From Cryobacterium arcticum (GTDB lineage: Bacteria > Actinomycetota > Actinomycetes > Actinomycetales > Microbacteriaceae), in NCBI RefSeq assembly GCF_003185895.1, contig NZ_QHLY01000007.1, forward strand, positions 248,001 through 312,000: 64,000 nucleotides of DNA, written 5' to 3'. Numbering within the stretch: the first letter of the stretch is position 1; every line of letters begins with the position of its first letter. The position numbers and the translations under genes are program-made. The notes under the pieces are model-generated. The model did not search any database, was not told the DNA's origin, and saw only the letters and a list, made by a program, of their open reading frames with translations. Positions 39,372 to 49,154 of the stretch are shown one piece after another.

Positions 39372-40136
39372 TTACTCCAAGAAGCCGCGCAATAGCAGGG
39401 CCGTGCCGACCAGGTGCTCGGTCATGGCCAGCGCCGCAGCCTCCGGGTTGCCGGTGAGGATCGCCATCACGATCTGTTCGTGCTGCCGGTTGGAGTGCGC
39501 GATGTTCGGGCCGAGCGACGGGATGCTGTCGAGGAGTTCGTTCACGCGCATGCGCACCTCGGCGAGCAGCGGCACCAGCGAGTTGGAGCCCGCCAGTTCA
39601 CCGATCGTGAGGTGTAACCGGGAGTCCAGCCGTCGGTAGTCGTCGTCAGTCGCGGCAGCGCAGTCGCCGAGGCTCGCCCAGAGGGCCTCCCGGTCGGCCG
39701 TGGACAGCGGCCGGGAGGCGGCCTGCCGGGCCGCGCCCACCTCGAGGACCTCGCGCAGAATGAGCGCATCATCGAGTTCGGCGGTGCTGAACTGCCGGGG
39801 CGGCACCGGCTCACCGTCGGCATCGAGGGCGGGACCGGTGGTGGGCAGTTCGTCGGTGACGAAGGTGCCGCCGTAACGGCCGCGGCGGGACACCAGGTAC
39901 CCGGCCTCGCCCAGGGACGCGAGCGCGTCCCGCAGGGTGTCCCGGCTCACGGCCAGCATGGCGGCCAGCTCCCGCTCAGCGGGCAGCCGTTCGCCGGGCG
40001 CGATCAGGCCCAACCGGATGGTCTGCAGCAGCCGCTGCACGGTCTCTTCGAACGCGTTGCCGCCGTGCACCGGCCGCAACAGCAGCTCAGAGCGGATGCC
40101 GCCGGCCGGGTCGGTGTCGTCTCCCAGGTGGATCAT
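39372..40136 (-). CDS. FadR-type GntR-family transcriptional regulator
   Basis: 254 residues. An N-terminal winged helix (RLPAERELAAMLAVSRDTLR, then LGEAGYLVSRRGRYGGTFV) and an all-helical FCD ligand domain (LILREVLEVGAARQAA, LDSRLHLTIGELAGSNSLVP, HSNRQHEQIVMAIL, whose Asp/His residues usually bind a metal). Such proteins repress catabolic operons until a small carboxylate or related ligand binds. It is the last gene of the ligase-dehydrogenase operon and the natural candidate to control it. ATG 40136 is preferred because CAGAAT lies nine bases upstream; a GTG at 40202 in the same frame would add 22 unlike residues. Confidence 0.88.
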   Translation of the reverse strand: MIHLGDDTDPAGGIRSELLLRPVHGGNAFEETVQRLLQTIRLGLIAPGERLPAERELAAMLAVSRDTLRDALASLGEAGYLVSRRGRYGGTFVTDELPTTGPALDADGEPVPPRQFSTAELDDALILREVLEVGAARQAASRPLSTADREALWASLGDCAAATDDDYRRLDSRLHLTIGELAGSNSLVPLLAEVRMRVNELLDSIPSLGPNIAHSNRQHEQIVMAILTGNPEAAALAMTEHLVGTALLLRGFLE

Positions 40137-40215
40137 GGTGGTTCCATTCTGCCCGCCGCTGTGCCCACCGGAGTGCCGGGAGCTGCTCGGGGTGCCTCGC
40201 ACGGTCAGGTCGGGT

Positions 40216-41004
40216 TCACTCCGGAGTCACGTACGCCGAACTGATTCCACCGTCCACGAGGAAGGTGGAACCGGTGATGAAGGAAGCGTCGTCGCTGGCG
40301 AGGAACGCCACCGCGGCGGCGAGTTCCTCCGGTTCCGCGAATCGGCCGACGGGAATGTGGATCAGCCGGCGGGCGGCCCTGGCCTGGTCCTTGGCGAACA
40401 ACTCCTGCAGCAGCGGGGTGTTCACCGGGCCGGGGCAGAGCGCGTTGACCCTGATGCCCTGCCGGGCGAATTGCACGCCCAGCTCGCGGCTCATCGCGAG
40501 CACCCCGCCCTTCGACGCGGTGTACGAGATCTGGCTGGTGGCCGAACCGAGCACCGCCACGAACGACGCGGTGTTGATGATCGACCCGCTGCCCTGGGCC
40601 ACCATGTGCCGCAGCGCCGCCCGGCAGCAGAGGTACACCGACTTGAGGTTGACGTCCTGCACCTTGTTCCAGGCCGGGAGTTCGGTGGTCTCGATCGAGT
40701 CGTCATCCGGCGGGGAGATGCCGGCGTTGTTGAAGGCGATGTCGACAGAGCCGTAGGTGGCCGCCGCGGTGTCGAAGAGGTTGTTCACCTGATCCTCGTC
40801 GGTCACGTCGACCCGCACGAAGAGTCCGTCGACCTCCGCGGCCGCGGCGGTTCCTGTGGTTTCGTCGACGTCGCCGATCACCACGGTCGCGCCCTCGGCA
40901 GCGAACCGGCGGGCGGTGGCCAGGCCGATTCCGCTGGCGCCGCCGGTGATCACGGCGACCTTGCCGGCCAGGCGCTGAGTGAGGTTGATCGGGGTGATGC
41001 TCAT
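40216..41004 (-). CDS. Short-chain dehydrogenase, proposed gamma-glutamyl-amino-alcohol oxidising enzyme
   Basis: 262 residues, classical SDR: VAVITGGASGIGLATARRF (NAD-binding), DIAFNNAGIS, catalytic Ser-Tyr-Lys in NTASF and YTASKGG, and GDVDETTG after strand two, where Asp favours NAD over NADP. The substrate is not determined by sequence. Its position between a regulator and an aldehyde dehydrogenase, in an operon with a glutamylating ligase, makes oxidation of a glutamylated alcohol to the aldehyde the best guess. AAGGAG precedes ATG 41004. It begins 33 bases after the aldehyde dehydrogenase stop. Confidence 0.85.
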   Translation of the reverse strand: MSITPINLTQRLAGKVAVITGGASGIGLATARRFAAEGATVVIGDVDETTGTAAAAEVDGLFVRVDVTDEDQVNNLFDTAAATYGSVDIAFNNAGISPPDDDSIETTELPAWNKVQDVNLKSVYLCCRAALRHMVAQGSGSIINTASFVAVLGSATSQISYTASKGGVLAMSRELGVQFARQGIRVNALCPGPVNTPLLQELFAKDQARAARRLIHIPVGRFAEPEELAAAVAFLASDDASFITGSTFLVDGGISSAYVTPE

Positions 41005-41037
41005 TGCTGCTCCTTGGGGCTGGGGGCTCGGGGGATT

Positions 41038-42405
41038 TCAGAGGCCGTCGACGGCGATGAAGACGTTCTTGGTCTCGGTGAAGTTCAGTGGTGCGTCCGG
41101 TCCGAGTTCCCGGCCGAGGCCGGACTGCTTGAACCCGCCGAACGGGGTGGTGTAGCGCACCGACGAGTGCGAGTTGACCGACAGGTTGCCGGATTCCACA
41201 CCGCGCGCCACCCGCACCGCCCGGCCCAGGTCCCTGGTCCAGATCGACCCGGACAAGCCGTACGGGGTGTCATTGGCCAGCTGCACCGCATCCGCTTCGT
41301 CGTCGAACGGAAGCACCGTCACGACCGGGCCGAAGATCTCGTCGGTCACGGCGCGGTCGGTGCGGCTGGCCGGGGTCAGCACCGTGGGCGGTACCCAGTA
41401 GCCGGGGCCGGAAGGGGTGGTGCCCTGGAAAGCCACCGGGGCGTCGGTCGGCAGGTAGGCGGACACCCGGGCCAGGTGGTCGGCCGAGACCAATGGGCCC
41501 ATCTCGGTGGCCTCGTCGGTCGGATCGCCGACGACCACGCCGGCCACGGCGGGTTCGAGCAGCTCCATGAACCGGTCGTAGACACTCCGTTCCACCAGAA
41601 TGCGGCTGCGCGCGCAGCAGTCCTGGCCGGCGTTCTCGAAGACGCCGTACGGCGCAGTCGCCGCGGCCTTCTCCAGGTCGGAATCGGCGAAGACGATGTT
41701 GGCGCTCTTGCCGCCGAGTTCCAGGGTGACCCTTTTCACCTGGGCGGCGCAGCCGGCCATGATCTTCTGTCCCACCGCGGTCGACCCGGTGAAGACCACT
41801 TTGCGCACGTCGGGGTGGGTGACAAAACGTTCGCCCACCACGGCACCCCGGCCGGGCAGCACCTGGAACAGCCCGTCGGGCAGGCCGGCGGCCAGGGCCA
41901 ATTCACCCAGCCGGATGCTGGAGAGCGGCGTCCACTCGGCCGGTTTCAGCAGCACTGCGTTGCCGGCGGCGAGGGCGGGCGCGAAACCCCAGGCCGCGAT
42001 GGTCATCGGGAAATTCCACGGCGTGATCACGCCGACCACCCCGAGCGGTTCCTGGAAGGTGACATCGATGCCGCCGGCGACCGGGATCTGTCGGCCGAAC
42101 AATCGCTCCGGCGCCGCGGAGTAGTACTGCAGCACGTCACGCACGTGGCCGGCCTCCCAGCGGGCCTGGCTGATCGGATGGCCCGAGTTGGCCACCTCGA
42201 TTCCAGCGAGGTTCTCCCGGTCGCCGTCGACGGCAGCGGCGAAACGGCGCAGCAGCAGAGCCTTGTCGGCGGGGGAGACCTTCGCCCAGTGCCGCTGTGC
42301 GGTGACCGCGCGGGCGATGGCATCGTCGGCGGCCGTCTGGTCGAGATGGGCGACGGTGGCGACCTCGGTCTCGGTCGCCGGGTTGATCACGGTGTAGCTG
42401 GTCAC
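41038..42405 (-). CDS. NAD-dependent aldehyde dehydrogenase
   Basis: 455 residues, ALDH superfamily. GVITPWNFPMTIAAWGFAPA, catalytic Glu region LELGGKSANIVF, catalytic cysteine in NAGQDCCARSR (two adjacent Cys), and the late EIFGPVVTVLPFDDE and GGFKQSGLGRELG motifs are all present, so the enzyme should be active. In the proposed pathway it oxidises a gamma-glutamyl aldehyde to the acid, as PuuC does in the putrescine pathway. GTG start at 42403-42405 overlaps the hydrolase stop in a GTGA quartet; a longer upstream reading frame lacks support. Confidence 0.9.
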   Translation of the reverse strand: MTSYTVINPATETEVATVAHLDQTAADDAIARAVTAQRHWAKVSPADKALLLRRFAAAVDGDRENLAGIEVANSGHPISQARWEAGHVRDVLQYYSAAPERLFGRQIPVAGGIDVTFQEPLGVVGVITPWNFPMTIAAWGFAPALAAGNAVLLKPAEWTPLSSIRLGELALAAGLPDGLFQVLPGRGAVVGERFVTHPDVRKVVFTGSTAVGQKIMAGCAAQVKRVTLELGGKSANIVFADSDLEKAAATAPYGVFENAGQDCCARSRILVERSVYDRFMELLEPAVAGVVVGDPTDEATEMGPLVSADHLARVSAYLPTDAPVAFQGTTPSGPGYWVPPTVLTPASRTDRAVTDEIFGPVVTVLPFDDEADAVQLANDTPYGLSGSIWTRDLGRAVRVARGVESGNLSVNSHSSVRYTTPFGGFKQSGLGRELGPDAPLNFTETKNVFIAVDGL

Positions 42406-43217
42406 GGTGAGGTGCTTCCTTCCGGTGTGGCCGGGTCGAGCGACGCCGCAGCAGCCTGCTCGCGGTCTCGATATTGCCGGGCGGCAGTGACGAGCCCGGT
42501 GAACAGGCGCAGGTCGTCCCTGGCCTCTTCCGGGTGCCACTGCACGGCCACGGCGAAGGTCGCGGCCGGCAGTTCGACGGCCTGCACGATGCCGGGCTCT
42601 GAGGTGCCGCTGACCACGAGGCCGGCGGCGAGCGTGTCGATGGCCTGGTGGTGGTACACCGGCACGGTAACCCGGTCGTCTCCGCCGAGCAGACCGCTGA
42701 GCCGGGAACCCGGTGCGACGGTGACGTCGGCGGAGTTGAAGACGCCCTGGCCGGCCTGGTACCGGGTGTCGCCCACCAGGTCGGGCAGGTGCTGGTGCAG
42801 GGATCCGCCCAGGGTCACGTTGAGCATCTGGGCGCCGCGGCAGATACCCAGAAAGGGCAGGTCACGATCGAGGGCGCCGCGCAACAGTTCGTCCTCCCAG
42901 CCGTCGCGGTCCGGCCGGGGCTGGTCGGTGAGCGGATGCGGCGACTGGCCGTACCTGCTCGGCTCGATGTCCTTGCCGCCGGTGATCACCAGCCCGTCGA
43001 GACCGTCGAGCACGCGCTCGGCGATGGCGGGCGTGACCGGTTGCGGGGGCAGCAGCACGGCGATGCCGCCGGCCCGGGTGATGGCGTCGAAGTAGACCAG
43101 CGGCAGGAAGGCGGCGGGCACGTTCCAGACGCCGGAACTCGCCTGCTCGAGGTAGGTGGTGAGACCGATCAGCGGTGCGCCGGCCGGGCGGGGCGAGGCG
43201 GGGTCAGAGCCGTTCAA
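42402..43217 (-). CDS. Class I glutamine amidotransferase-like gamma-glutamyl hydrolase (PuuD-like)
   Basis: 271 residues. LIGLTTYLEQ at the N-terminus, LDGLVITGGKDIEPSRYG, nucleophile cysteine in FLGICRGAQMLNVTLGG, HHQAIDTL and the His/Glu pair in AVQWHPEEA give the complete triad of the gamma-glutamyl-GABA hydrolase family. It should cleave the gamma-glutamyl amide to free glutamate and the second amino acid. The start is most likely TTG 43217, overlapping the ligase stop by 14 bases; no better-placed ATG or GTG is available before the conserved domain. Overlaps both neighbours, indicating a tightly coupled operon. Confidence 0.85.
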   Translation of the reverse strand: MNGSDPASPRPAGAPLIGLTTYLEQASSGVWNVPAAFLPLVYFDAITRAGGIAVLLPPQPVTPAIAERVLDGLDGLVITGGKDIEPSRYGQSPHPLTDQPRPDRDGWEDELLRGALDRDLPFLGICRGAQMLNVTLGGSLHQHLPDLVGDTRYQAGQGVFNSADVTVAPGSRLSGLLGGDDRVTVPVYHHQAIDTLAAGLVVSGTSEPGIVQAVELPAATFAVAVQWHPEEARDDLRLFTGLVTAARQYRDREQAAAASLDPATPEGSTSP

Positions 43218-44604
43218 AGCCGCGCACCCGCTCCCAGTCGGTGACCACCGAGTCGTAGGCGGCCAGTTCGATGCGTGCGTTGTTGAGGTAGTGGTCCACC
43301 ACCTCGTCGCCGAACGCCTCACGGGCGATGGCCGATCCGGCAAAGAGCGTGGCTGCTTCGCGGAGCGATGCCGGCACCCGGGGTGCGTCGCTCTCGTAGG
43401 CGTTGCCCACGAAAACGTCGTCGAGCTCGAGCTCGTTCTCGATGCCGTATAGCCCCGCGGCGATCAGGGCGCTCACGGCGAGGTACTGGTTGACGTCGCC
43501 GCCGGGCACCCGGTTCTCCACCCGCATGCCGTGGCCGCGGCCCACCACGCGCAGGGCGCAGGTGCGGTTGTCCAGCCCCCAGGCGATCGCCGTGGGCGCG
43601 AAGCTGCCGGGCACATACCGTTTGTACGAGTTGATGTTGGGGGCGGAGAACAGGGTGAGTTCCCGCATCACGGCGAGCTGGCCGGCCAGGAACTGCCGAA
43701 ACAGGGTGGACATGCCGTGTTCGGCATCCGCGTCGGCGAAGACGGCAGAACCGTCGGTGCCGCGCAGGCTGATGTGGATGTGGCAGCTGTTGCCCTCGCG
43801 CTCGTTGAACTTGGCCATGAAGGTCAGGCTCTTGCCGTGGGCATCCGCGATCTCTTTCGCGCCGTTCTTATAGATCGAGTGGTTGTCGCAGGTGACCAAC
43901 GCCGGAGCGTACCGGAACGCGATCTCCTGCTGGCCGAGGTTGCATTCGCCCTTCACGCCCTCGCAGTACATTCCGGCGCCGTCCATGGCCAACCGGATCT
44001 CCCGCAGCAGCGGTTCCATCCGGGTGGAGGCGAGCAGGGCGTAGTCGATGTTGTAGTCGGTGGCCGGGGTCAGGTTCCGGTAGCCCTTCTTCCAGGCCTC
44101 ACGGTAGCCGTCGTCGAAGACCAGGAATTCCAGCTCGGTGCCCACAAACGCCTCCAGGCCGCGCGCTTCCAGCCGGTCGAGCTGGGTCTGCAGGATCTGG
44201 CGGGGGGACTGCACGACGGGCGCTTCGTCGAGCCAGTGCAGGTCCGCGGTGACCAGGGCGGTACCGGGCAGCCACGGAACGAGCCGGAGGGTGCTGATGT
44301 CGGGCATCATCACCATGTCGCCATAGCCGCGTTCCCAGCTCGACATCGCGTAGCCGTCGACGGTGTTCATGTCCACGTCGACGGCAAGCAGGTAGTTGCA
44401 GCATTCTGCTCCGTGCGACTGCACGTCTTCGACGAACAGGCGGGCGGAGACCCGTTTGCCCACCAGTCGGCCCTGCATGTCGGTGAACGCCACGATGACG
44501 GTGTCGATCCGGCCGGTGGAGACGGCTTCGGCGAGCGCGTCGACACCCAGGTAGCCGGGGTTCCGGTGCTCGCTGCTCCCAGCGGAGGGACGGTTCTCGG
44601 TCAT
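43204..44604 (-). CDS. Glutamine-synthetase-like gamma-glutamyl-amine ligase (PuuA/GlnA4-like)
   Basis: 466 residues. GS-fold signatures: TDMQGRLVGKRV, VGTELEFLVF (metal Glu), GVKGECNLGQQEIAFRYA, GNSCHIHISL (the GSxxHxH equivalent) and ENRVPGGDVNQYLAVSALIA. The adenylylation-site segment of true glutamine synthetase is absent, as in amine ligases. These enzymes join glutamate to an amine with ATP: PuuA uses putrescine, Streptomyces GlnA4 uses ethanolamine, and IpuC uses isopropylamine. The neighbouring ethanolamine-type permease and dehydrogenases favour an amino alcohol. GAGGAG is well placed before ATG 44604. First gene of the operon, divergent from the permease. Confidence 0.88.
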   Translation of the reverse strand: MTENRPSAGSSEHRNPGYLGVDALAEAVSTGRIDTVIVAFTDMQGRLVGKRVSARLFVEDVQSHGAECCNYLLAVDVDMNTVDGYAMSSWERGYGDMVMMPDISTLRLVPWLPGTALVTADLHWLDEAPVVQSPRQILQTQLDRLEARGLEAFVGTELEFLVFDDGYREAWKKGYRNLTPATDYNIDYALLASTRMEPLLREIRLAMDGAGMYCEGVKGECNLGQQEIAFRYAPALVTCDNHSIYKNGAKEIADAHGKSLTFMAKFNEREGNSCHIHISLRGTDGSAVFADADAEHGMSTLFRQFLAGQLAVMRELTLFSAPNINSYKRYVPGSFAPTAIAWGLDNRTCALRVVGRGHGMRVENRVPGGDVNQYLAVSALIAAGLYGIENELELDDVFVGNAYESDAPRVPASLREAATLFAGSAIAREAFGDEVVDHYLNNARIELAAYDSVVTDWERVRGFERL

Positions 44605-44717
44605 GGGATCTCCTCGTGGACGGTGCGCGGAGCGCGGAGTGCGAGAGCTGACAGGGAGTCAAACGATGCGAACTCGACCATTAGATCACAGGAGTAGGAC
44701 GGAAAGCGGGGCAAGTT

Positions 44718-44735
44718 TTTACATGCTGTTTACAT
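44718..44735. promoter_or_regulatory. Direct repeat TTTACAT, candidate operator between ligase and permease
   Basis: TTTACAT occurs at 44718-44724 and 44729-44735, 11 bases apart (one helical turn), in the AT-rich centre of the 213-base divergent region. This is the position expected for a regulator acting on both the operon and the permease. Confidence 0.45.
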
Positions 44736-44767
44736 CCAAAGGTCTGTGCAGCGAACCATTGAGTGCC

Positions 44768-44773
44768 TAGGCT
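44768..44773 (+). promoter_or_regulatory. Possible -10 element of the permease gene
   Basis: TAGGCT, 44 bases upstream of the GTG at 44818. It would give a leader of about 38 bases carrying the GAGGAG ribosome binding site. Confidence 0.35.
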
Positions 44774-44817
44774 CGGGCGACAACCGCATCACTACAGCAA
44801 CCCTGAGGAGCCCCCTG

Positions 44818-46332
44818 GTGTCTGAGTCCCGATCCGTTTCCGGCGTCACGTACACGCCTGCCGAGGCAGGATATTTTGAGAAACGCTCTCTCAAGCGCAC
44901 CGCCGGGTTCTGGGGAATCTGGGGGATCGGCATCGCCGCGGTCATCTCCGGCGACTTCTCCGGCTGGAACTTCGGCCTGGCGTCCGCCGGCTTCGGCGGC
45001 ATGCTGATCGCGTTCGTGCTCGTGGTGGTGATGTACTTCACGATGCTGTTCTCAATCGGCGAGATGTCGGCCGCCATGCCGCACACCGGCGGCGCCTACT
45101 CCTTCGCCCGCGCCGCGATGGGCCCGTGGGGCGGCTTCATCACCGGCCTGGCCGAGACCATCGAGTACGTGGCAACGACGGCGGTCATCGTCTACTTCTC
45201 TGCCGCCTACGCCAACGGCATCACCTCGGTGTTGTTCGGTTTCGAGCTGCCGGGCTGGATGTGGTGGGTGATCCTGTACGCCGTGTTCATCCTGCTCAAC
45301 ATGGCGGGCGCGGCCGTCTCGTTCGCCTTCGCACTGGTGGTGGCGGTGGTCTCGATCGCGATCCTGGCGGTGTTCGCGGTCCTGGCGATCGTCTCCGGCC
45401 AGTTCAGTGTCGACAACCTCTTCGACATCGTGCCGGATGCCGGCCAAACCGAGTTCCTGCCGCACGGTGTGCTGCCCATCCTCTTCGCCCTGCCATTCGC
45501 GATGTGGTTCTTCCTCGGTATCGAGGAACTGCCGCTCGTGGCCGAAGAGGCACACAACCCGACAAAGGACATTCCCCGGGCCGGCATCGTCGGCATGATC
45601 ACGCTCGTCATCTGCGGTGCCGCGGTGCTCGTGCTCAACCCCGGCATCAACGGCTCCGAGGCGCTCGGGGTGTCGGCCGAGCCGCTGCTGGACGGGTTCA
45701 GGGCGATCCTGCCCGACGGCCTGGCCGCCGTGCTCAGCGCCTTCGCCCTGATCGGGTTGCTCGCGTCGTTGCAGGGCATCATGTTCGCCTACGGCCGCAA
45801 CATGTATTCGCTTAGCCGGGCCGGCTACTACCCCAAGGTGCTTTCGCTCACCGGTAAGCGCCAGACCCCGTGGGTGGCCCTGCTGGTCGGCGCGGTCATC
45901 GGTTTCGTGGCGCTGATCGTTGTCGACCTCACCGGTGGTTCCGCCGGGTCCGGCGGCGCGATCGTGCTGAACATCGCCGTCTGGGGCGCTGTGCTCGCCT
46001 ATGTGCTGCAGATGGCCTCGTTCATCATCCTGCGCCGGGTGTTCCCGAATGCGAACCGCCCGTACGTGAGCCCCACCGGTGTGGCCGGAGCCGTCGTCGC
46101 CGGCATCATCGCCCTGGCGATCTTCCTCGGCTTCCTGCTCAACGAGGCTTTCCGGCCGGCCATCGTCGCGATCGCCGTCGTGTACGTCGTGGGTCTGGTG
46201 CTGTTCGCGGTGTTCGGCCGCAGCCGGCTGGTGCTCTCGCCCGAGGAGGAATACGCGCTCTCCGGGGGCATGCACGGCGACCCGCAGGCCGAGGGTTATG
46301 ACGCCATGGAGAAGGACGTCTTCCCGGGGTAG
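44818..46332 (+). CDS. APC-family permease of the ethanolamine permease type
   Basis: 504 residues, about 12 membrane helices. YFEKRSLKRTAGFWGIWGIG, AVISGDFSGWNFGLASAGFG, MSAAMPHTGGAYSFARAAMG and LAETIEYVATTAVIVYF closely fit the ethanolamine permease subgroup of the amino acid/polyamine/organocation family. It should import ethanolamine or a related small amine. GTG 44818 is chosen because GAGGAG (44805-44810) is correctly spaced. It is divergent from the ligase operon, and the shared intergenic region contains a TTTACAT direct repeat. A GC-rich hairpin follows the stop. Confidence 0.88.
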   Translation: MSESRSVSGVTYTPAEAGYFEKRSLKRTAGFWGIWGIGIAAVISGDFSGWNFGLASAGFGGMLIAFVLVVVMYFTMLFSIGEMSAAMPHTGGAYSFARAAMGPWGGFITGLAETIEYVATTAVIVYFSAAYANGITSVLFGFELPGWMWWVILYAVFILLNMAGAAVSFAFALVVAVVSIAILAVFAVLAIVSGQFSVDNLFDIVPDAGQTEFLPHGVLPILFALPFAMWFFLGIEELPLVAEEAHNPTKDIPRAGIVGMITLVICGAAVLVLNPGINGSEALGVSAEPLLDGFRAILPDGLAAVLSAFALIGLLASLQGIMFAYGRNMYSLSRAGYYPKVLSLTGKRQTPWVALLVGAVIGFVALIVVDLTGGSAGSGGAIVLNIAVWGAVLAYVLQMASFIILRRVFPNANRPYVSPTGVAGAVVAGIIALAIFLGFLLNEAFRPAIVAIAVVYVVGLVLFAVFGRSRLVLSPEEEYALSGGMHGDPQAEGYDAMEKDVFPG

Positions 46333-46471: not shown

Positions 46472-48046
46472 ATGAGCCACAAGCTCACCACCGACGGCAA
46501 TGGAGCCAGCGTGCACACCACGAACAGCCTGTCCACTCAGACCGAATCGACGAACCCCACTGTGACCCTAGACACCAGCGCACCGGAGGATTTGGGCGCC
46601 GACATCCCCGCGGCCGCCCCCGGCTTCCGCATCGAGCGTGACTCGCTCGGCCGCGTCGAGGTGCCGCTCGAGGCCTACTGGGGGGTGCACACCAAGCGCG
46701 CCCTGGATAACTTTCCGATCGCCAAGCGACCGATCTCGGTCTACCCGGACTTCGTGGTGGCCCTGGCCTCGGTGAAGCAGGCCTGCGCCCGGGCGAACGC
46801 CGAGGTCGGCGCCCTCTCCCAGGAACGCGCCGACTGGATCGATGCCGCGTGCCAGGAGATCATCGAGGGAAAGCACCACGACCAGTTCGTGGTCGGGGTC
46901 ATGCAGGGCGGCGCCGGCACCTCCACCAACATGAACGCCAACGAGGTGATCTGCAACCTCGCCCTCGAGAACGCCGGCTACAGCCGCGGCCGCTATGACG
47001 TGCTCAGCCCGATCGACCACGTCAACCGCAGCCAGTCCACCAATGACACCTACCCGACCGCGATCAAGATCGCCCTCGCCTTCTTCCTCAAGCACCTGCT
47101 GCGCGAGCTCAAGGCGCTGCAGGGGTCGTTCTCGGTGAAGGCCGACGAGTTCTCCCACATCCTCAAGGTGGGCCGCACCCAGATGCAGGATGCCGTGCCG
47201 ATGACCCTCGGCCAGGAATTCCATGGCTTCGCCACCACCCTCGGCGAAGACTACGACCGGCTCACCGAAACGATCTGGCTGCTGGCCGAGGTCAACCTGG
47301 GCGCCACCGCGATCGGCACCGGCATCACGGCCGATCCCGGCTACGCGGCCGCGGCCATCCGGCACCTGAACAAGATCACGGGCCTCAAGCTCGAGACCGC
47401 CCCCGACCTGATCGAGTCGACCAGCGACGCGGGCAGCTTCATGTCGTTCAGCGGCAACCTCAAGCGCAGCGCGATCAAGCTCTCCAAGATCTGCAACGAC
47501 CTGCGCCTGCTCTCCAGCGGCCCGCAGGCCGGCCTGGGTGAGATCAACCTGCCGCCCCGGCAGGCCGGTTCGAGCATCATGCCCGGCAAGGTCAACCCCG
47601 TTATTCCCGAGGTCGTCAACCAGGTGGCGTTCGCCGTCGCCGGCGCGGATGTGACGGTGACGATGGCCGCGGAAGGCGGGCAGCTGCAGCTCAACGCCTT
47701 CGAGCCCGTCATCGCGCACTACCTCTTCCAGAGCCTGACCTGGATGACCCAGGCGATGTGGACGCTGCGGGTGAACTGCATCGACGGCATCACCGCCAAC
47801 GAAGACCGGCTGGCCGCCATGGTCGGCTCCAGCGTCGGAGTGATCACCGCGCTCATCCCGCACATCGGCTACGCCGCTGCAGCCGCCCTGGCCCAGACGG
47901 CTCTGCTGACCGGGCGTAACGTGGCCGACCTGGTGGTGGAGGCGAACCTGATGACCCGCGACGACGTGATGCGCGAGCTCGAACCCGCCCGGCTCTCCGG
48001 CATGATGCCCGACACCGGCACCTCCTCCATCCCGATCATCGAGTAG
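46472..48046 (+). CDS. aspA: Aspartate ammonia-lyase
   Basis: 524 residues of the fumarase/aspartase superfamily. After a 50-residue low-complexity extension the enzyme shows VPLEAYWGVHTKRAL, MQGGAGTSTNMNANEVI, NRSQSTNDTYPTA, VGRTQMQDAVPMTLG and the catalytic loop GSSIMPGKVNPVIPEV. The TSTNMNANEV and SQSTNDTYPT forms, together with the overall match, point to aspartase (L-aspartate to fumarate and ammonia) rather than class II fumarase, though the two are hard to separate by eye. A GTG at 46511 preceded by GGAG is an alternative start that would shorten the extension. It follows the amine-utilisation cluster, so both concern nitrogen supply. Confidence 0.88.
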   Translation: MSHKLTTDGNGASVHTTNSLSTQTESTNPTVTLDTSAPEDLGADIPAAAPGFRIERDSLGRVEVPLEAYWGVHTKRALDNFPIAKRPISVYPDFVVALASVKQACARANAEVGALSQERADWIDAACQEIIEGKHHDQFVVGVMQGGAGTSTNMNANEVICNLALENAGYSRGRYDVLSPIDHVNRSQSTNDTYPTAIKIALAFFLKHLLRELKALQGSFSVKADEFSHILKVGRTQMQDAVPMTLGQEFHGFATTLGEDYDRLTETIWLLAEVNLGATAIGTGITADPGYAAAAIRHLNKITGLKLETAPDLIESTSDAGSFMSFSGNLKRSAIKLSKICNDLRLLSSGPQAGLGEINLPPRQAGSSIMPGKVNPVIPEVVNQVAFAVAGADVTVTMAAEGGQLQLNAFEPVIAHYLFQSLTWMTQAMWTLRVNCIDGITANEDRLAAMVGSSVGVITALIPHIGYAAAAALAQTALLTGRNVADLVVEANLMTRDDVMRELEPARLSGMMPDTGTSSIPIIE

Positions 48047-48239: not shown

Positions 48240-49154
48240 GTGTCCCTGCGGGTGAGGCAACAGAGCCGTCGTCGCGAGCCGATCATGCCCGATCGACTCG
48301 CGGCACTCGATGCCGCCCTGCCCGACATCGACTGGACGATTCTGCCGCCGGGAACGGAGCACTACCGGTTTCCGGCACCGAGCGGTGACCTGGCCTCGAT
48401 CGCGCTCGGTCGACCCGGCGATCCCCGCGTGCTGCTGCTGCCGGGCGCCACCGGTTCCAAAGAAGACTTTGTCTTGCTGGCGCCGCTCCTCGCCGACGCC
48501 GGCTACCGGGTGGAGAGCTACGACCTGGCCGGCCAGTACGAATCGGCGCCGGCCGGGCCGCCCACCGGCCACGCATTCGACTATCCCCTGTTCGTCGCCG
48601 ACCTGATCGCGGTGCTCGAGGCGGGGGAGACCCCCGTGCACGTGCTCGGCTATTCCTTCGCCGGTCTCGTGGCCGAGCTGGCCCTCGCCCGGCGCCCCGA
48701 CTTGTTCGCGTCGCTGGTGCTGCTGGCGACTCCGCCGCAAGCGGGGCAGACCTTCCGCGGGGTGCGCTGGCTCGGCCCGGTGAGCGGATTGGTTCCGCCG
48801 CACACCATTGCCACGCTGATGGTCTGGGGCATTGTCACCAACCGCAACCACACGCGCCCCGGCCGGCTCGACCTGGTGCGGATGCGTTTCGGCTATACCC
48901 GGCGCACCAGCCTCGACCAGATCATCGCGCTGATGAAGAACACCCCGGATGTGCGGAGCGCCCTGGCGCACACCCCGGTGCCGATGCTGATCGCGGTGGG
49001 CGACCGTGACCTGTGGAAGGTTCGGCTGCACCGCCGGTTCGCGAACCGGATCGGTGCTGAGCTGAAGGTCTACCCGGCGGGCCACAGCCCCTGCGAAACG
49101 ACGCCGCACCAGCTTGCTCGGGACATGCTCGCTCTCTACGACCGCGGGCGGTGA
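48240..49154 (+). CDS. Alpha/beta-fold hydrolase
   Basis: 304 residues. Typical alpha/beta hydrolase order: VLLLPGATGSKEDFVLLAPL (oxyanion region), nucleophile elbow HVLGYSFAGLVAE with Ser, LIAVGDRDLWKV (acid) and PAGHSPCETTPH (catalytic His). A helical cap lies between residues 170 and 235. No signal peptide. Substrate unknown; this is a very broad family. GTG 48240 is preferred on promoter grounds; ATG 48285 would remove 15 residues that are not conserved-looking. The 3' end overlaps the convergent glycosyltransferase gene by 19 bases. Confidence 0.82.
   Translation: MSLRVRQQSRRREPIMPDRLAALDAALPDIDWTILPPGTEHYRFPAPSGDLASIALGRPGDPRVLLLPGATGSKEDFVLLAPLLADAGYRVESYDLAGQYESAPAGPPTGHAFDYPLFVADLIAVLEAGETPVHVLGYSFAGLVAELALARRPDLFASLVLLATPPQAGQTFRGVRWLGPVSGLVPPHTIATLMVWGIVTNRNHTRPGRLDLVRMRFGYTRRTSLDQIIALMKNTPDVRSALAHTPVPMLIAVGDRDLWKVRLHRRFANRIGAELKVYPAGHSPCETTPHQLARDMLALYDRGR

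What the first reader, a model, noticed from the sequence alone, without database searches (positions are those of the whole stretch)
39372..46332. Complete glutamate-capping pathway for a small amino alcohol, probably ethanolamine
Seen: a five-gene minus-strand operon with overlapping genes (GS-like ligase, PuuD-like hydrolase, aldehyde dehydrogenase, SDR, FadR-type regulator) faces an ethanolamine-type permease. Known: PuuA/PuuB/PuuC/PuuD degrade putrescine through gamma-glutamyl intermediates, and Streptomyces GlnA4 makes gamma-glutamylethanolamide. Inference: there is no PuuB-type flavin amine oxidase here, but there is an SDR, which fits oxidation of an alcohol rather than an amine. The set would convert ethanolamine to gamma-glutamylethanolamide, then aldehyde, then gamma-glutamylglycine, then glycine plus glutamate. 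This would be an ethanolamine route without ethanolamine ammonia-lyase, microcompartment or vitamin B12. Alaninol or an isopropylamine-derived alcohol are alternatives.
Basis: partly seen in the sequence, partly recalled or inferred. Interest (0 to 1): 0.78.

Follow-up and report, generated by a model that had tools for sequence, protein, structure and literature searches.

The report
Glutamate-capping ethanolamine operon, with operator
This is an actinobacterial gene set that most likely breaks down ethanolamine after first attaching it to glutamate, a route already proposed for Streptomyces; the new part is a conserved DNA switch next to these genes that tends to appear and disappear together with their regulator gene.

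Summary
In detail: ligase, hydrolase, aldehyde dehydrogenase, SDR and GntR/FCD regulator lie on the minus strand, facing a permease. The five minus-strand genes match the published Streptomyces coelicolor glnA4 cluster (SCO1611-SCO1615), for which the same ethanolamine to glycine-plus-glutamate route was proposed in 2019 (PMC6529630); in what I read, only GlnA4 was assayed. The ligase is a reciprocal best hit of GlnA4 and keeps 14 of 15 checked positions. Of 80 named relatives (the best of 591), 42 have the window's exact gene order. The genome has no EutB.

What I did not find in print is a candidate operator, AAWGGT-N10/11-ACCWTT, at 44738-44760, with a weaker copy over the ligase promoter. 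At up to 2 mismatches it lies upstream of the ligase in 71 of 73 loci that carry the regulator and 1 of 16 without it in the DNA held, 14 of those 16 being Mycobacteriaceae. Where genes are rearranged it also lies before permease or hydrolase. Its spacing is unusually wide for the FadR subfamily. Substrate and steps 2-4 remain untested biochemically.

The parts
43204..44604 (-). GlnA4-type gamma-glutamylethanolamide synthetase (ligase, step 1)
   Evidence: Gln-synt_C, 331.8 bits; reciprocal best hit and 62.5% identity to the GlnA4 counterpart of G533; metal, glutamate and ADP residues kept, and F335 where glutamine synthetase has the E327 flap
42402..43217 (-). Peptidase_C26 / class-I GATase-like gamma-glutamyl hydrolase (proposed step 4); exact start not settled
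   Evidence: PF07722, 204 bits; GICRG, YHHQ and WHPE motifs present (their roles recalled); 44.4% identity to the SCO1615 counterpart
41038..42405 (-). Aldehyde dehydrogenase (proposed step 3); probable GTG start overlapping the hydrolase stop (start read from the translation; one search was run with 42408)
   Evidence: PF00171, 511.9 bits; LELGGK and GQDC motifs (roles recalled); 64.7% identity to the SCO1612 counterpart
40216..41004 (-). Short-chain dehydrogenase (proposed step 2, alcohol oxidation)
   Evidence: PF13561/PF00106; TGGASGIG, NNAG, NTAS and YTASK motifs, D after the second strand (NAD preference is a recalled rule); 74.4% identity to the SCO1611 counterpart
39372..40202 (-). GntR/FCD (FadR-subfamily) regulator, counterpart of EpuRI (SCO1614); exact start not settled
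   Evidence: PF00392 and PF07729; 49.0% identity to the G533 counterpart, which has the same two domains
44818..46332 (+). APC-family permease, probable ethanolamine uptake; ORF listed from 44746, likely start GTG 44818
   Evidence: TIGR00908 346 bits, below the cut-off of 381.75; the two Streptomyces-like permeases tested at the same cluster (L125, L128) pass it with 500 and 489 bits; four permeases from other genomes are 38-43% identical to this one
44738..44760 (-). Candidate operator O1, AATGGT-N11-ACCTTT, beside the permease promoter
   Evidence: Perfect match; one of 2 exact AATGGT-N10/11-ACCWTT sites in the 4.3 Mb genome; conservation
44661..44682 (-). Weaker candidate operator O2, AATGGT-N10-TCGTTT (2 mismatches), overlapping the ligase -10 region
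   Evidence: the relatives L044, L045, L047, L054 and L106 have a perfect N10 copy near this place
44680..44685 (-). Probable -10 hexamer (TCTAAT on the minus strand, in TGTGATCTAATGG) of the ligase operon
   Evidence: Conserved block in the alignment of the window and 10 relatives; promoter assignment is inference

Best explanation
This is the actinobacterial GlnA4 ethanolamine pathway in a Microbacteriaceae-like genome. The permease imports ethanolamine. The ligase uses ATP to join its amine to the gamma-carboxyl of glutamate. The SDR oxidises the hydroxyl to an aldehyde, the aldehyde dehydrogenase makes gamma-glutamylglycine, and the C26 hydrolase releases glycine and glutamate. The GntR/FCD protein, counterpart of EpuRI, represses both divergent promoters by binding AAWGGT-N10/11-ACCWTT sites between ligase and permease, and releases them when the substrate or a gamma-glutamyl intermediate is present. 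Shown here: gene content, orthology, catalytic residues of the ligase, and co-occurrence of site and regulator. Shown by others in S. coelicolor: GlnA4 activity, its need for growth on ethanolamine, repression by EpuRI, and EpuRI binding to the glnA4 and epuRI promoters in vitro. Inferred: steps 2-4, the inducer, the exact binding site, and the substrate in this organism.
For: Identities 44-74% and reciprocal best hits of the ligase among the glutamine synthetase homologues found in the two genomes. 15 of 17 printed GlnA4 positions fit that protein's numbering, and the window keeps 14 of those 15, including F in place of the E327 flap. Gene order conserved in 42 of 80 named loci. SDR in 18 of 20 distant loci. 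No EutB. Operator: at up to 2 mismatches in 60 of 62 regulator-bearing loci not used to find it, against 1 of 16 without the regulator; 87 of 90 sites in 1.49 Mb lie before the ligase, the hydrolase or a permease. EpuRI is a repressor (PMC6529630 section 11) and binds the glnA4 and epuRI promoters (PMC8998196 section 10).
Against: No biochemistry for this organism. I saw no assay of SDR, ALDH or hydrolase in the passages and sections read. The window permease is below the TIGR00908 cut-off. EpuRI also shifted the promoters of sco5652, sco5654, sco5657, epuRII and epuRIV, yet only 4 sites (N10, up to 1 mismatch; N11 not searched) were found in all of G533, two of them at this locus and two not examined, so the site cannot explain all of those targets. 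Two regulator-bearing loci (L087, L134) have no site within 2 mismatches upstream of the ligase. The 16 loci without the regulator are 14 Mycobacteriaceae plus L094 and L131, so that class is close to one lineage, and the regulator is only known to be absent from the DNA held.
Confidence: 0.85

Rival explanations
1. The same chemistry on a different small amino alcohol (alaninol, 1-amino-2-propanol, 3-aminopropanol) rather than ethanolamine.
For: The SDR/ALDH/C26 chemistry would act on any primary amino alcohol (inference); the permease is below the ethanolamine-permease cut-off; in 2 loci (L076, L104) the permease behind the operator belongs to another APC subfamily (TIGR00907, itself below cut-off).
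Against: The ligase keeps the printed GlnA4 residues and is the reciprocal best hit of the enzyme shown to use ethanolamine; two Streptomyces-like permeases at the same cluster pass the ethanolamine-permease cut-off.
Confidence: 0.1
2. A putrescine (Puu-type) or polyamine pathway.
For: Shares a glutamine-synthetase-like ligase, an ALDH and a C26 hydrolase with Puu; the hydrolase's best NCBIfam hit is gamma-glutamyl-GABA hydrolase, 99.3 bits, below its cut-off of 266.
Against: Gamma-glutamylputrescine synthetase model 187.8 bits against a cut-off of 650, PuuC 353 against 850; DAO relatives in only 2 of 96 loci, away from the ligase (four DAO queries). Of the genome's 27 DAO matches five were run against NCBIfam and none hit a model named for a gamma-glutamylputrescine oxidase at E 1e-20; 22 were not run. 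S. coelicolor glnA4 deletion does not change polyamine use (PMC8998196 passage).
Confidence: 0.03
3. The inverted repeat is a general promoter element or the site of another protein, not the operator of the GntR/FCD regulator.
For: O2 overlaps a -10 element; the GT-AC distance of 10-11 nt does not fit the 2-3 nt usual for FadR-subfamily sites (PMC4494728 passages); EpuRI shifted promoters that the site does not explain.
Against: Present with the regulator and absent without it, also inside Mycobacteriaceae (10 of 10 against 0 of 14 at up to 1 mismatch); lies before relocated permease and hydrolase genes; EpuRI binds the glnA4 promoter region, where the S. coelicolor-like locus L140 has the site.
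Confidence: 0.2

Closest known systems
S. coelicolor glnA4 cluster SCO1610-SCO1615 (PMC6529630)
   Same: Ligase, ALDH, SDR, C26 hydrolase and GntR/FCD regulator are counterparts; some other Streptomyces add a permease
   Different: Window order is ligase-hydrolase-ALDH-SDR-regulator in one run with a divergent permease; in the S. coelicolor-like locus the regulator and hydrolase are divergent from the ligase and the permease is missing
C. salexigens / Phaeobacter gamma-glutamyl ethanolamine pathway (PMC9397018 table 2, passage; PMC10132767 passages)
   Same: Same proposed four chemical steps; C. salexigens ligase is PF00120
   Different: C. salexigens is listed with an iron-dependent dehydrogenase (PF00465) and a formylglutamate amidohydrolase (PF05013); here an SDR and a PF07722 hydrolase. 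Uptake in Phaeobacter is by a TRAP transporter
E. coli Puu putrescine pathway (recalled)
   Same: Glutamate capping, ALDH, C26 hydrolase
   Different: No PuuB-type oxidase found beside the ligase; an SDR instead
Eut ethanolamine pathway (recalled)
   Same: Same proposed substrate
   Different: No EutB in the genome

Membership tests
GlnA4 gamma-glutamylethanolamide synthetase | Closest glutamine synthetase homologue is GlnA4, reciprocally | tested here: met
   59.6% over 483 residues (open frames) or 62.5% over 448; next best homologue about 33-34%. The frame picked for one weak homologue, L146, may not be the matching one
GlnA4 gamma-glutamylethanolamide synthetase | Metal, glutamate and ADP residues kept; E327 flap replaced by F | tested here: met
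   14 of the 15 positions that fit the printed numbering are identical; V189 is L190 in the window
GlnA4 gamma-glutamylethanolamide synthetase | Makes gamma-glutamylethanolamide from ethanolamine | not testable with these tools
   Needs an enzyme assay
SCO1610-1615-type ethanolamine cluster | SDR, ALDH, ligase, C26 hydrolase, regulator together | tested here: met
SCO1610-1615-type ethanolamine cluster | Membrane protein orf1 (SCO1610) | not tested
   The 2019 figure legend lists it; no homologue was sought
TIGR00908 ethanolamine permease | Score above the curated cut-off of 381.75 | tested here: not met
   346 bits; related, not a member by that model
Puu putrescine pathway | PuuB-type flavin oxidase with the ligase | tested here: not met
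   With four DAO queries, 2 of 96 loci hold a relative, kilobases away
Gamma-glutamylputrescine synthetase (NF045547) | Score above the cut-off of 650 | tested here: not met
   187.8 bits
Eut pathway | EutB ethanolamine ammonia-lyase in the genome | tested here: not met
   No match in own genome; among 14 control genomes the search rings in E. coli only
C. salexigens-type variant | PF00465 dehydrogenase and PF05013 amidohydrolase | tested here: not met
   Window proteins are PF13561/PF00106 and PF07722
FadR-subfamily regulator | GntR HTH plus FCD domain | tested here: met
FadR-subfamily regulator | Operator with GT and AC 2-3 nt apart (usual form) | tested here: not met
   Candidate site has 10-11 nt; binding itself untested

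The most novel reading that the evidence does not exclude
The ethanolamine gamma-glutamylation genes of actinobacteria form one small regulon, read by a FadR-subfamily repressor through an unusually wide inverted repeat (AAWGGT-N10/11-ACCWTT, GT to AC 10-11 nt instead of 2-3). The site moves with the pathway genes, including replacement permeases of another subfamily, and is lost together with the regulator in part of the Mycobacteriaceae.
Probability: 0.7. Interest if true: 0.5.

Novelty: new member of a known kind. Interest (0 to 1): 0.38.

Why it matters
It extends a pathway known from one assayed enzyme in Streptomyces to a complete, ordered operon in Microbacteriaceae, Mycobacteriaceae and other actinobacteria, and gives an operator that can be tested at once and used to find missing members such as transporters. 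It also suggests that a published table lists as orthologues, in two of the four steps, enzymes that fall into different Pfam families in C. salexigens and in actinobacteria.

Tried and rejected
Exact palindrome search with spacers up to 9 nt found nothing shared (best pattern in 2 of 25 regions); the operator was then seen by eye in the printed alignment of the window and 10 relatives, so those 11 are not independent and repeats the counts without them. The compact FadR-type pattern (T.GT, 1-3 nt, AC.A) was found in only 5 of 25 intergenic regions, at differing places. A wider regulon in the own genome: at up to 1 mismatch there are 6 palindromic sites with N10 and 4 with N11, the same numbers as the tool's reversed-pattern control; that control equalled the observed count in G533 too, so I lean on it lightly. 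The second exact site in the own genome (L168) lies among a phage-like set of small ORFs and appears to be in coding DNA. Whether mycobacterial counterparts are in print: a search for Rv2857c-Rv2860c (names recalled) found 1 paper with two of the four (listing only). Novelty of the operator: searches. Of 15 papers holding EpuRI or SCO1614 as whole words, five concern Streptomyces or its nitrogen metabolism; I read passages or sections of four of them (PMC6529630, PMC8998196, PMC9397018, PMC11356490) and only the listing for PMC9739823.

Rows dropped in the operator counts: L126 and L135 (ligase without the cluster) were not among the 95 loci; 6 of the 95 (L052, L079, L082, L091, L096, L108) hold too little DNA downstream to say that the regulator is absent and are in neither class (their best sites have 1, 1, 0, 4, 4 and 4 mismatches). 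An earlier count left out 23 loci whose ligase start was not recognised and is superseded. The Mycobacteriaceae subset (24 loci, picked by record title) leaves out L079, L091 and L096 as too short. The 20 distant loci were chosen by me from the matches.
Full report
Observation. Two of the four junctions in the minus-strand run overlap; the others are gaps of 33 and 13 nt. The permease ORF probably begins at GTG 44818, preceded by GAGGAG, because close relatives align there and keep little coding similarity before it (inference). This leaves 213 bp between ligase (44604) and permease.

Genome. The window lies in a 4.3 Mb genome of 13 contigs. The closest named ligases are from Cryobacterium, Salinibacterium, Agreia and other Microbacteriaceae (first eight rows 79-85% identity), so the genome is probably a member of that family. 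It has four Gln-synt_C matches: a GlnA1-type enzyme, a second one whose best match in G533 is L143 (68.9%; probably GlnA2, which is a gamma-glutamylpolyamine synthetase in S. coelicolor according to PMC8998196; the equation of L143 with GlnA2 is inference), the window's ligase, and a weak match inside a long frame. It has no EutB.

Counterpart of a published cluster. PMC6529630 (passages; sections 12 and 11) describes S. coelicolor SCO1610-SCO1615: membrane protein, short-chain dehydrogenase, aldehyde dehydrogenase, GlnA4, regulator EpuRI, glutamine amidotransferase, plus a permease in some other Streptomyces. To test the match I looked for six printed RT primers (two each for glnA4, SCO1612, SCO1614). 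Window proteins are 62.5% (ligase), 74.4% (SDR), 64.7% (ALDH), 44.4% (hydrolase) and 49.0% (regulator) identical to it, and the ligases are reciprocal best hits among the glutamine synthetase homologues found in both genomes. Of 17 positions printed for GlnA4, 15 fit the numbering of this protein; the window ligase is identical at 14 of those 15, including F for the flap glutamate E327, where the other two full-length homologues of the window's genome have E.

Conservation. Of 80 named loci (the best of 591), 42 have the window's exact order (permease divergent; ligase, hydrolase, ALDH, SDR, regulator), 14 lack regulator and permease within 7 kb, 11 lack only the permease, 4 have the regulator divergent and the hydrolase last, 3 lack only the regulator (two of them, L052 and L108, on DNA that ends early), and 6 have other or cut-off arrangements. 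Of 16 further loci from Streptomyces-like and other genomes, 14 have all four enzymes; L126 and L135 have a ligase alone. In 20 distant relatives that I chose (ligase identity 45-62%) an SDR relative is in the locus in 18, though in L153 about 6 kb away; ALDH in 12, hydrolase in 7. Among 96 loci, relatives of four DAO proteins of the own genome occur in two, kilobases from the ligase.

Two versions of the pathway. A table in PMC9397018 (passage) sets SCO1611 and SCO1615 beside C. salexigens protein families PF00465 and PF05013 under the heading orthologues. The SCO1615 counterpart is PF07722, and the SCO1611 counterpart is 74.4% identical to the window SDR, which is PF13561/PF00106. Two of the four steps therefore seem to be done by different enzyme families in the two lineages. 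That two different alcohol-oxidising families accompany the same kind of ligase speaks for an amino alcohol as substrate (inference; I did not examine C. salexigens DNA).

Operator. Aligning the ligase-permease spacer of the window and 10 relatives showed an inverted repeat, AAWGGT-N10/11-ACCWTT, near the permease promoter, and in several relatives a second copy over the ligase -10 region. In the window the first copy is perfect (44738-44760) and the second has two mismatches (44661-44682). Over 95 loci, a site at up to 2 mismatches lies within 360 bp upstream of the ligase in 71 of 73 loci with the regulator and 1 of 16 without it; at up to 1 mismatch 60 of 73 and 0 of 16; at 0 mismatches 27 of 73 and 0 of 16. 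First-order Markov sequences gave 19, 2 and 0 of 475, and a coding control 6, 0 and 0 of 95. Without the 11 discovery loci the counts are 60, 49 and 18 of 62. Spacing matters: at up to 1 mismatch 38 of 62 loci have N10, 11 have N11, and every other spacing from 3 to 19 gives 0 or 1. Among 180 permuted half-sites the observed one ranks first (49 of 62); the next three (34, 30, 20) are near variants of it and the fifth gives 6. In the 24 Mycobacteriaceae loci counted, 10 of 10 with the regulator and 0 of 14 without have the site at up to 1 mismatch. Caveats: these loci are related by descent, so the P values printed by the scripts overstate the case; 14 of the 16 loci without the regulator are Mycobacteriaceae; and absence of the regulator means absence from the DNA held.

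The site follows the genes. In 1.49 Mb (95 loci) there are 90 sites at up to 1 mismatch: 73 before the ligase (52 of them also before the permease, 12 also before the regulator), 7 before a relocated hydrolase in Streptomyces-like loci, 5 before a relocated permease (4 loci), 5 elsewhere. Two of those 5, both perfect, sit just upstream of a permease whose best NCBIfam hit is TIGR00907 (below its cut-off), in loci L076 and L104, which lack the window's type of permease. That leaves three unexplained, each with one mismatch, one of them in the window itself (48788-48809, inside a coding frame). The published work fits: EpuRI represses glnA4 and its purified form shifts the glnA4 and epuRI promoters (PMC8998196 section 10), where L140 has the site. 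It does not fit in one respect: EpuRI also shifted at least five other promoters, while G533 holds only four sites (N10, up to 1 mismatch), two at this locus and two that I did not examine. L087 and L134 carry the regulator without the site.

The spacing is odd. PMC4494728 (passages) gives 2-3 nt between GT and AC for most FadR-subfamily sites, with exceptions; here it is 10-11. The regulator might bind as a larger assembly or with a different dimer geometry; this is open.

Verdict. The finding is real and its biochemical reading is very likely right, but it is a new member of a published kind. The operator is the part I did not find in print.

Noticed in passing
L140:6029-6050 and the ligase start beside it: In the S. 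coelicolor-like locus the candidate operator runs into the ATG that fits the published GlnA4 numbering, while GGAGG and then a GTG follow, the GTG ten codons after that ATG; the published start may be too early.
   Followed up: no
46472-48046: An aspartase-like gene lies downstream of the permease on the same strand, and a homologue was found in the loci of 8 of 80 relatives and in L133.
   Followed up: partly
G000:C9:284929-285483 (L004): A weak Gln-synt_C match (76 bits) inside a 759-codon frame, perhaps a fused glutamine-synthetase-like protein.
   Followed up: no
L101, from 9365: The hydrolase of a Microbacterium locus appears as two short pieces (77 and 66 bits) in different frames, so it may be broken or misread.
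   Followed up: no
L076:6308-7855 and L104:13158-14693: A permease of another APC subfamily stands behind a perfect operator copy in clusters lacking the window's permease, suggesting replacement of the transporter.
   Followed up: partly
G000:C9:540212-540233 (L168): Second exact operator-like site in the genome, among a phage-like set of small ORFs; probably chance.
   Followed up: partly
G533:C1:8568944-8568965 (L177): A perfect N10 copy of the operator-like site far from the glnA4 locus in the S. coelicolor-like genome.
   Followed up: no
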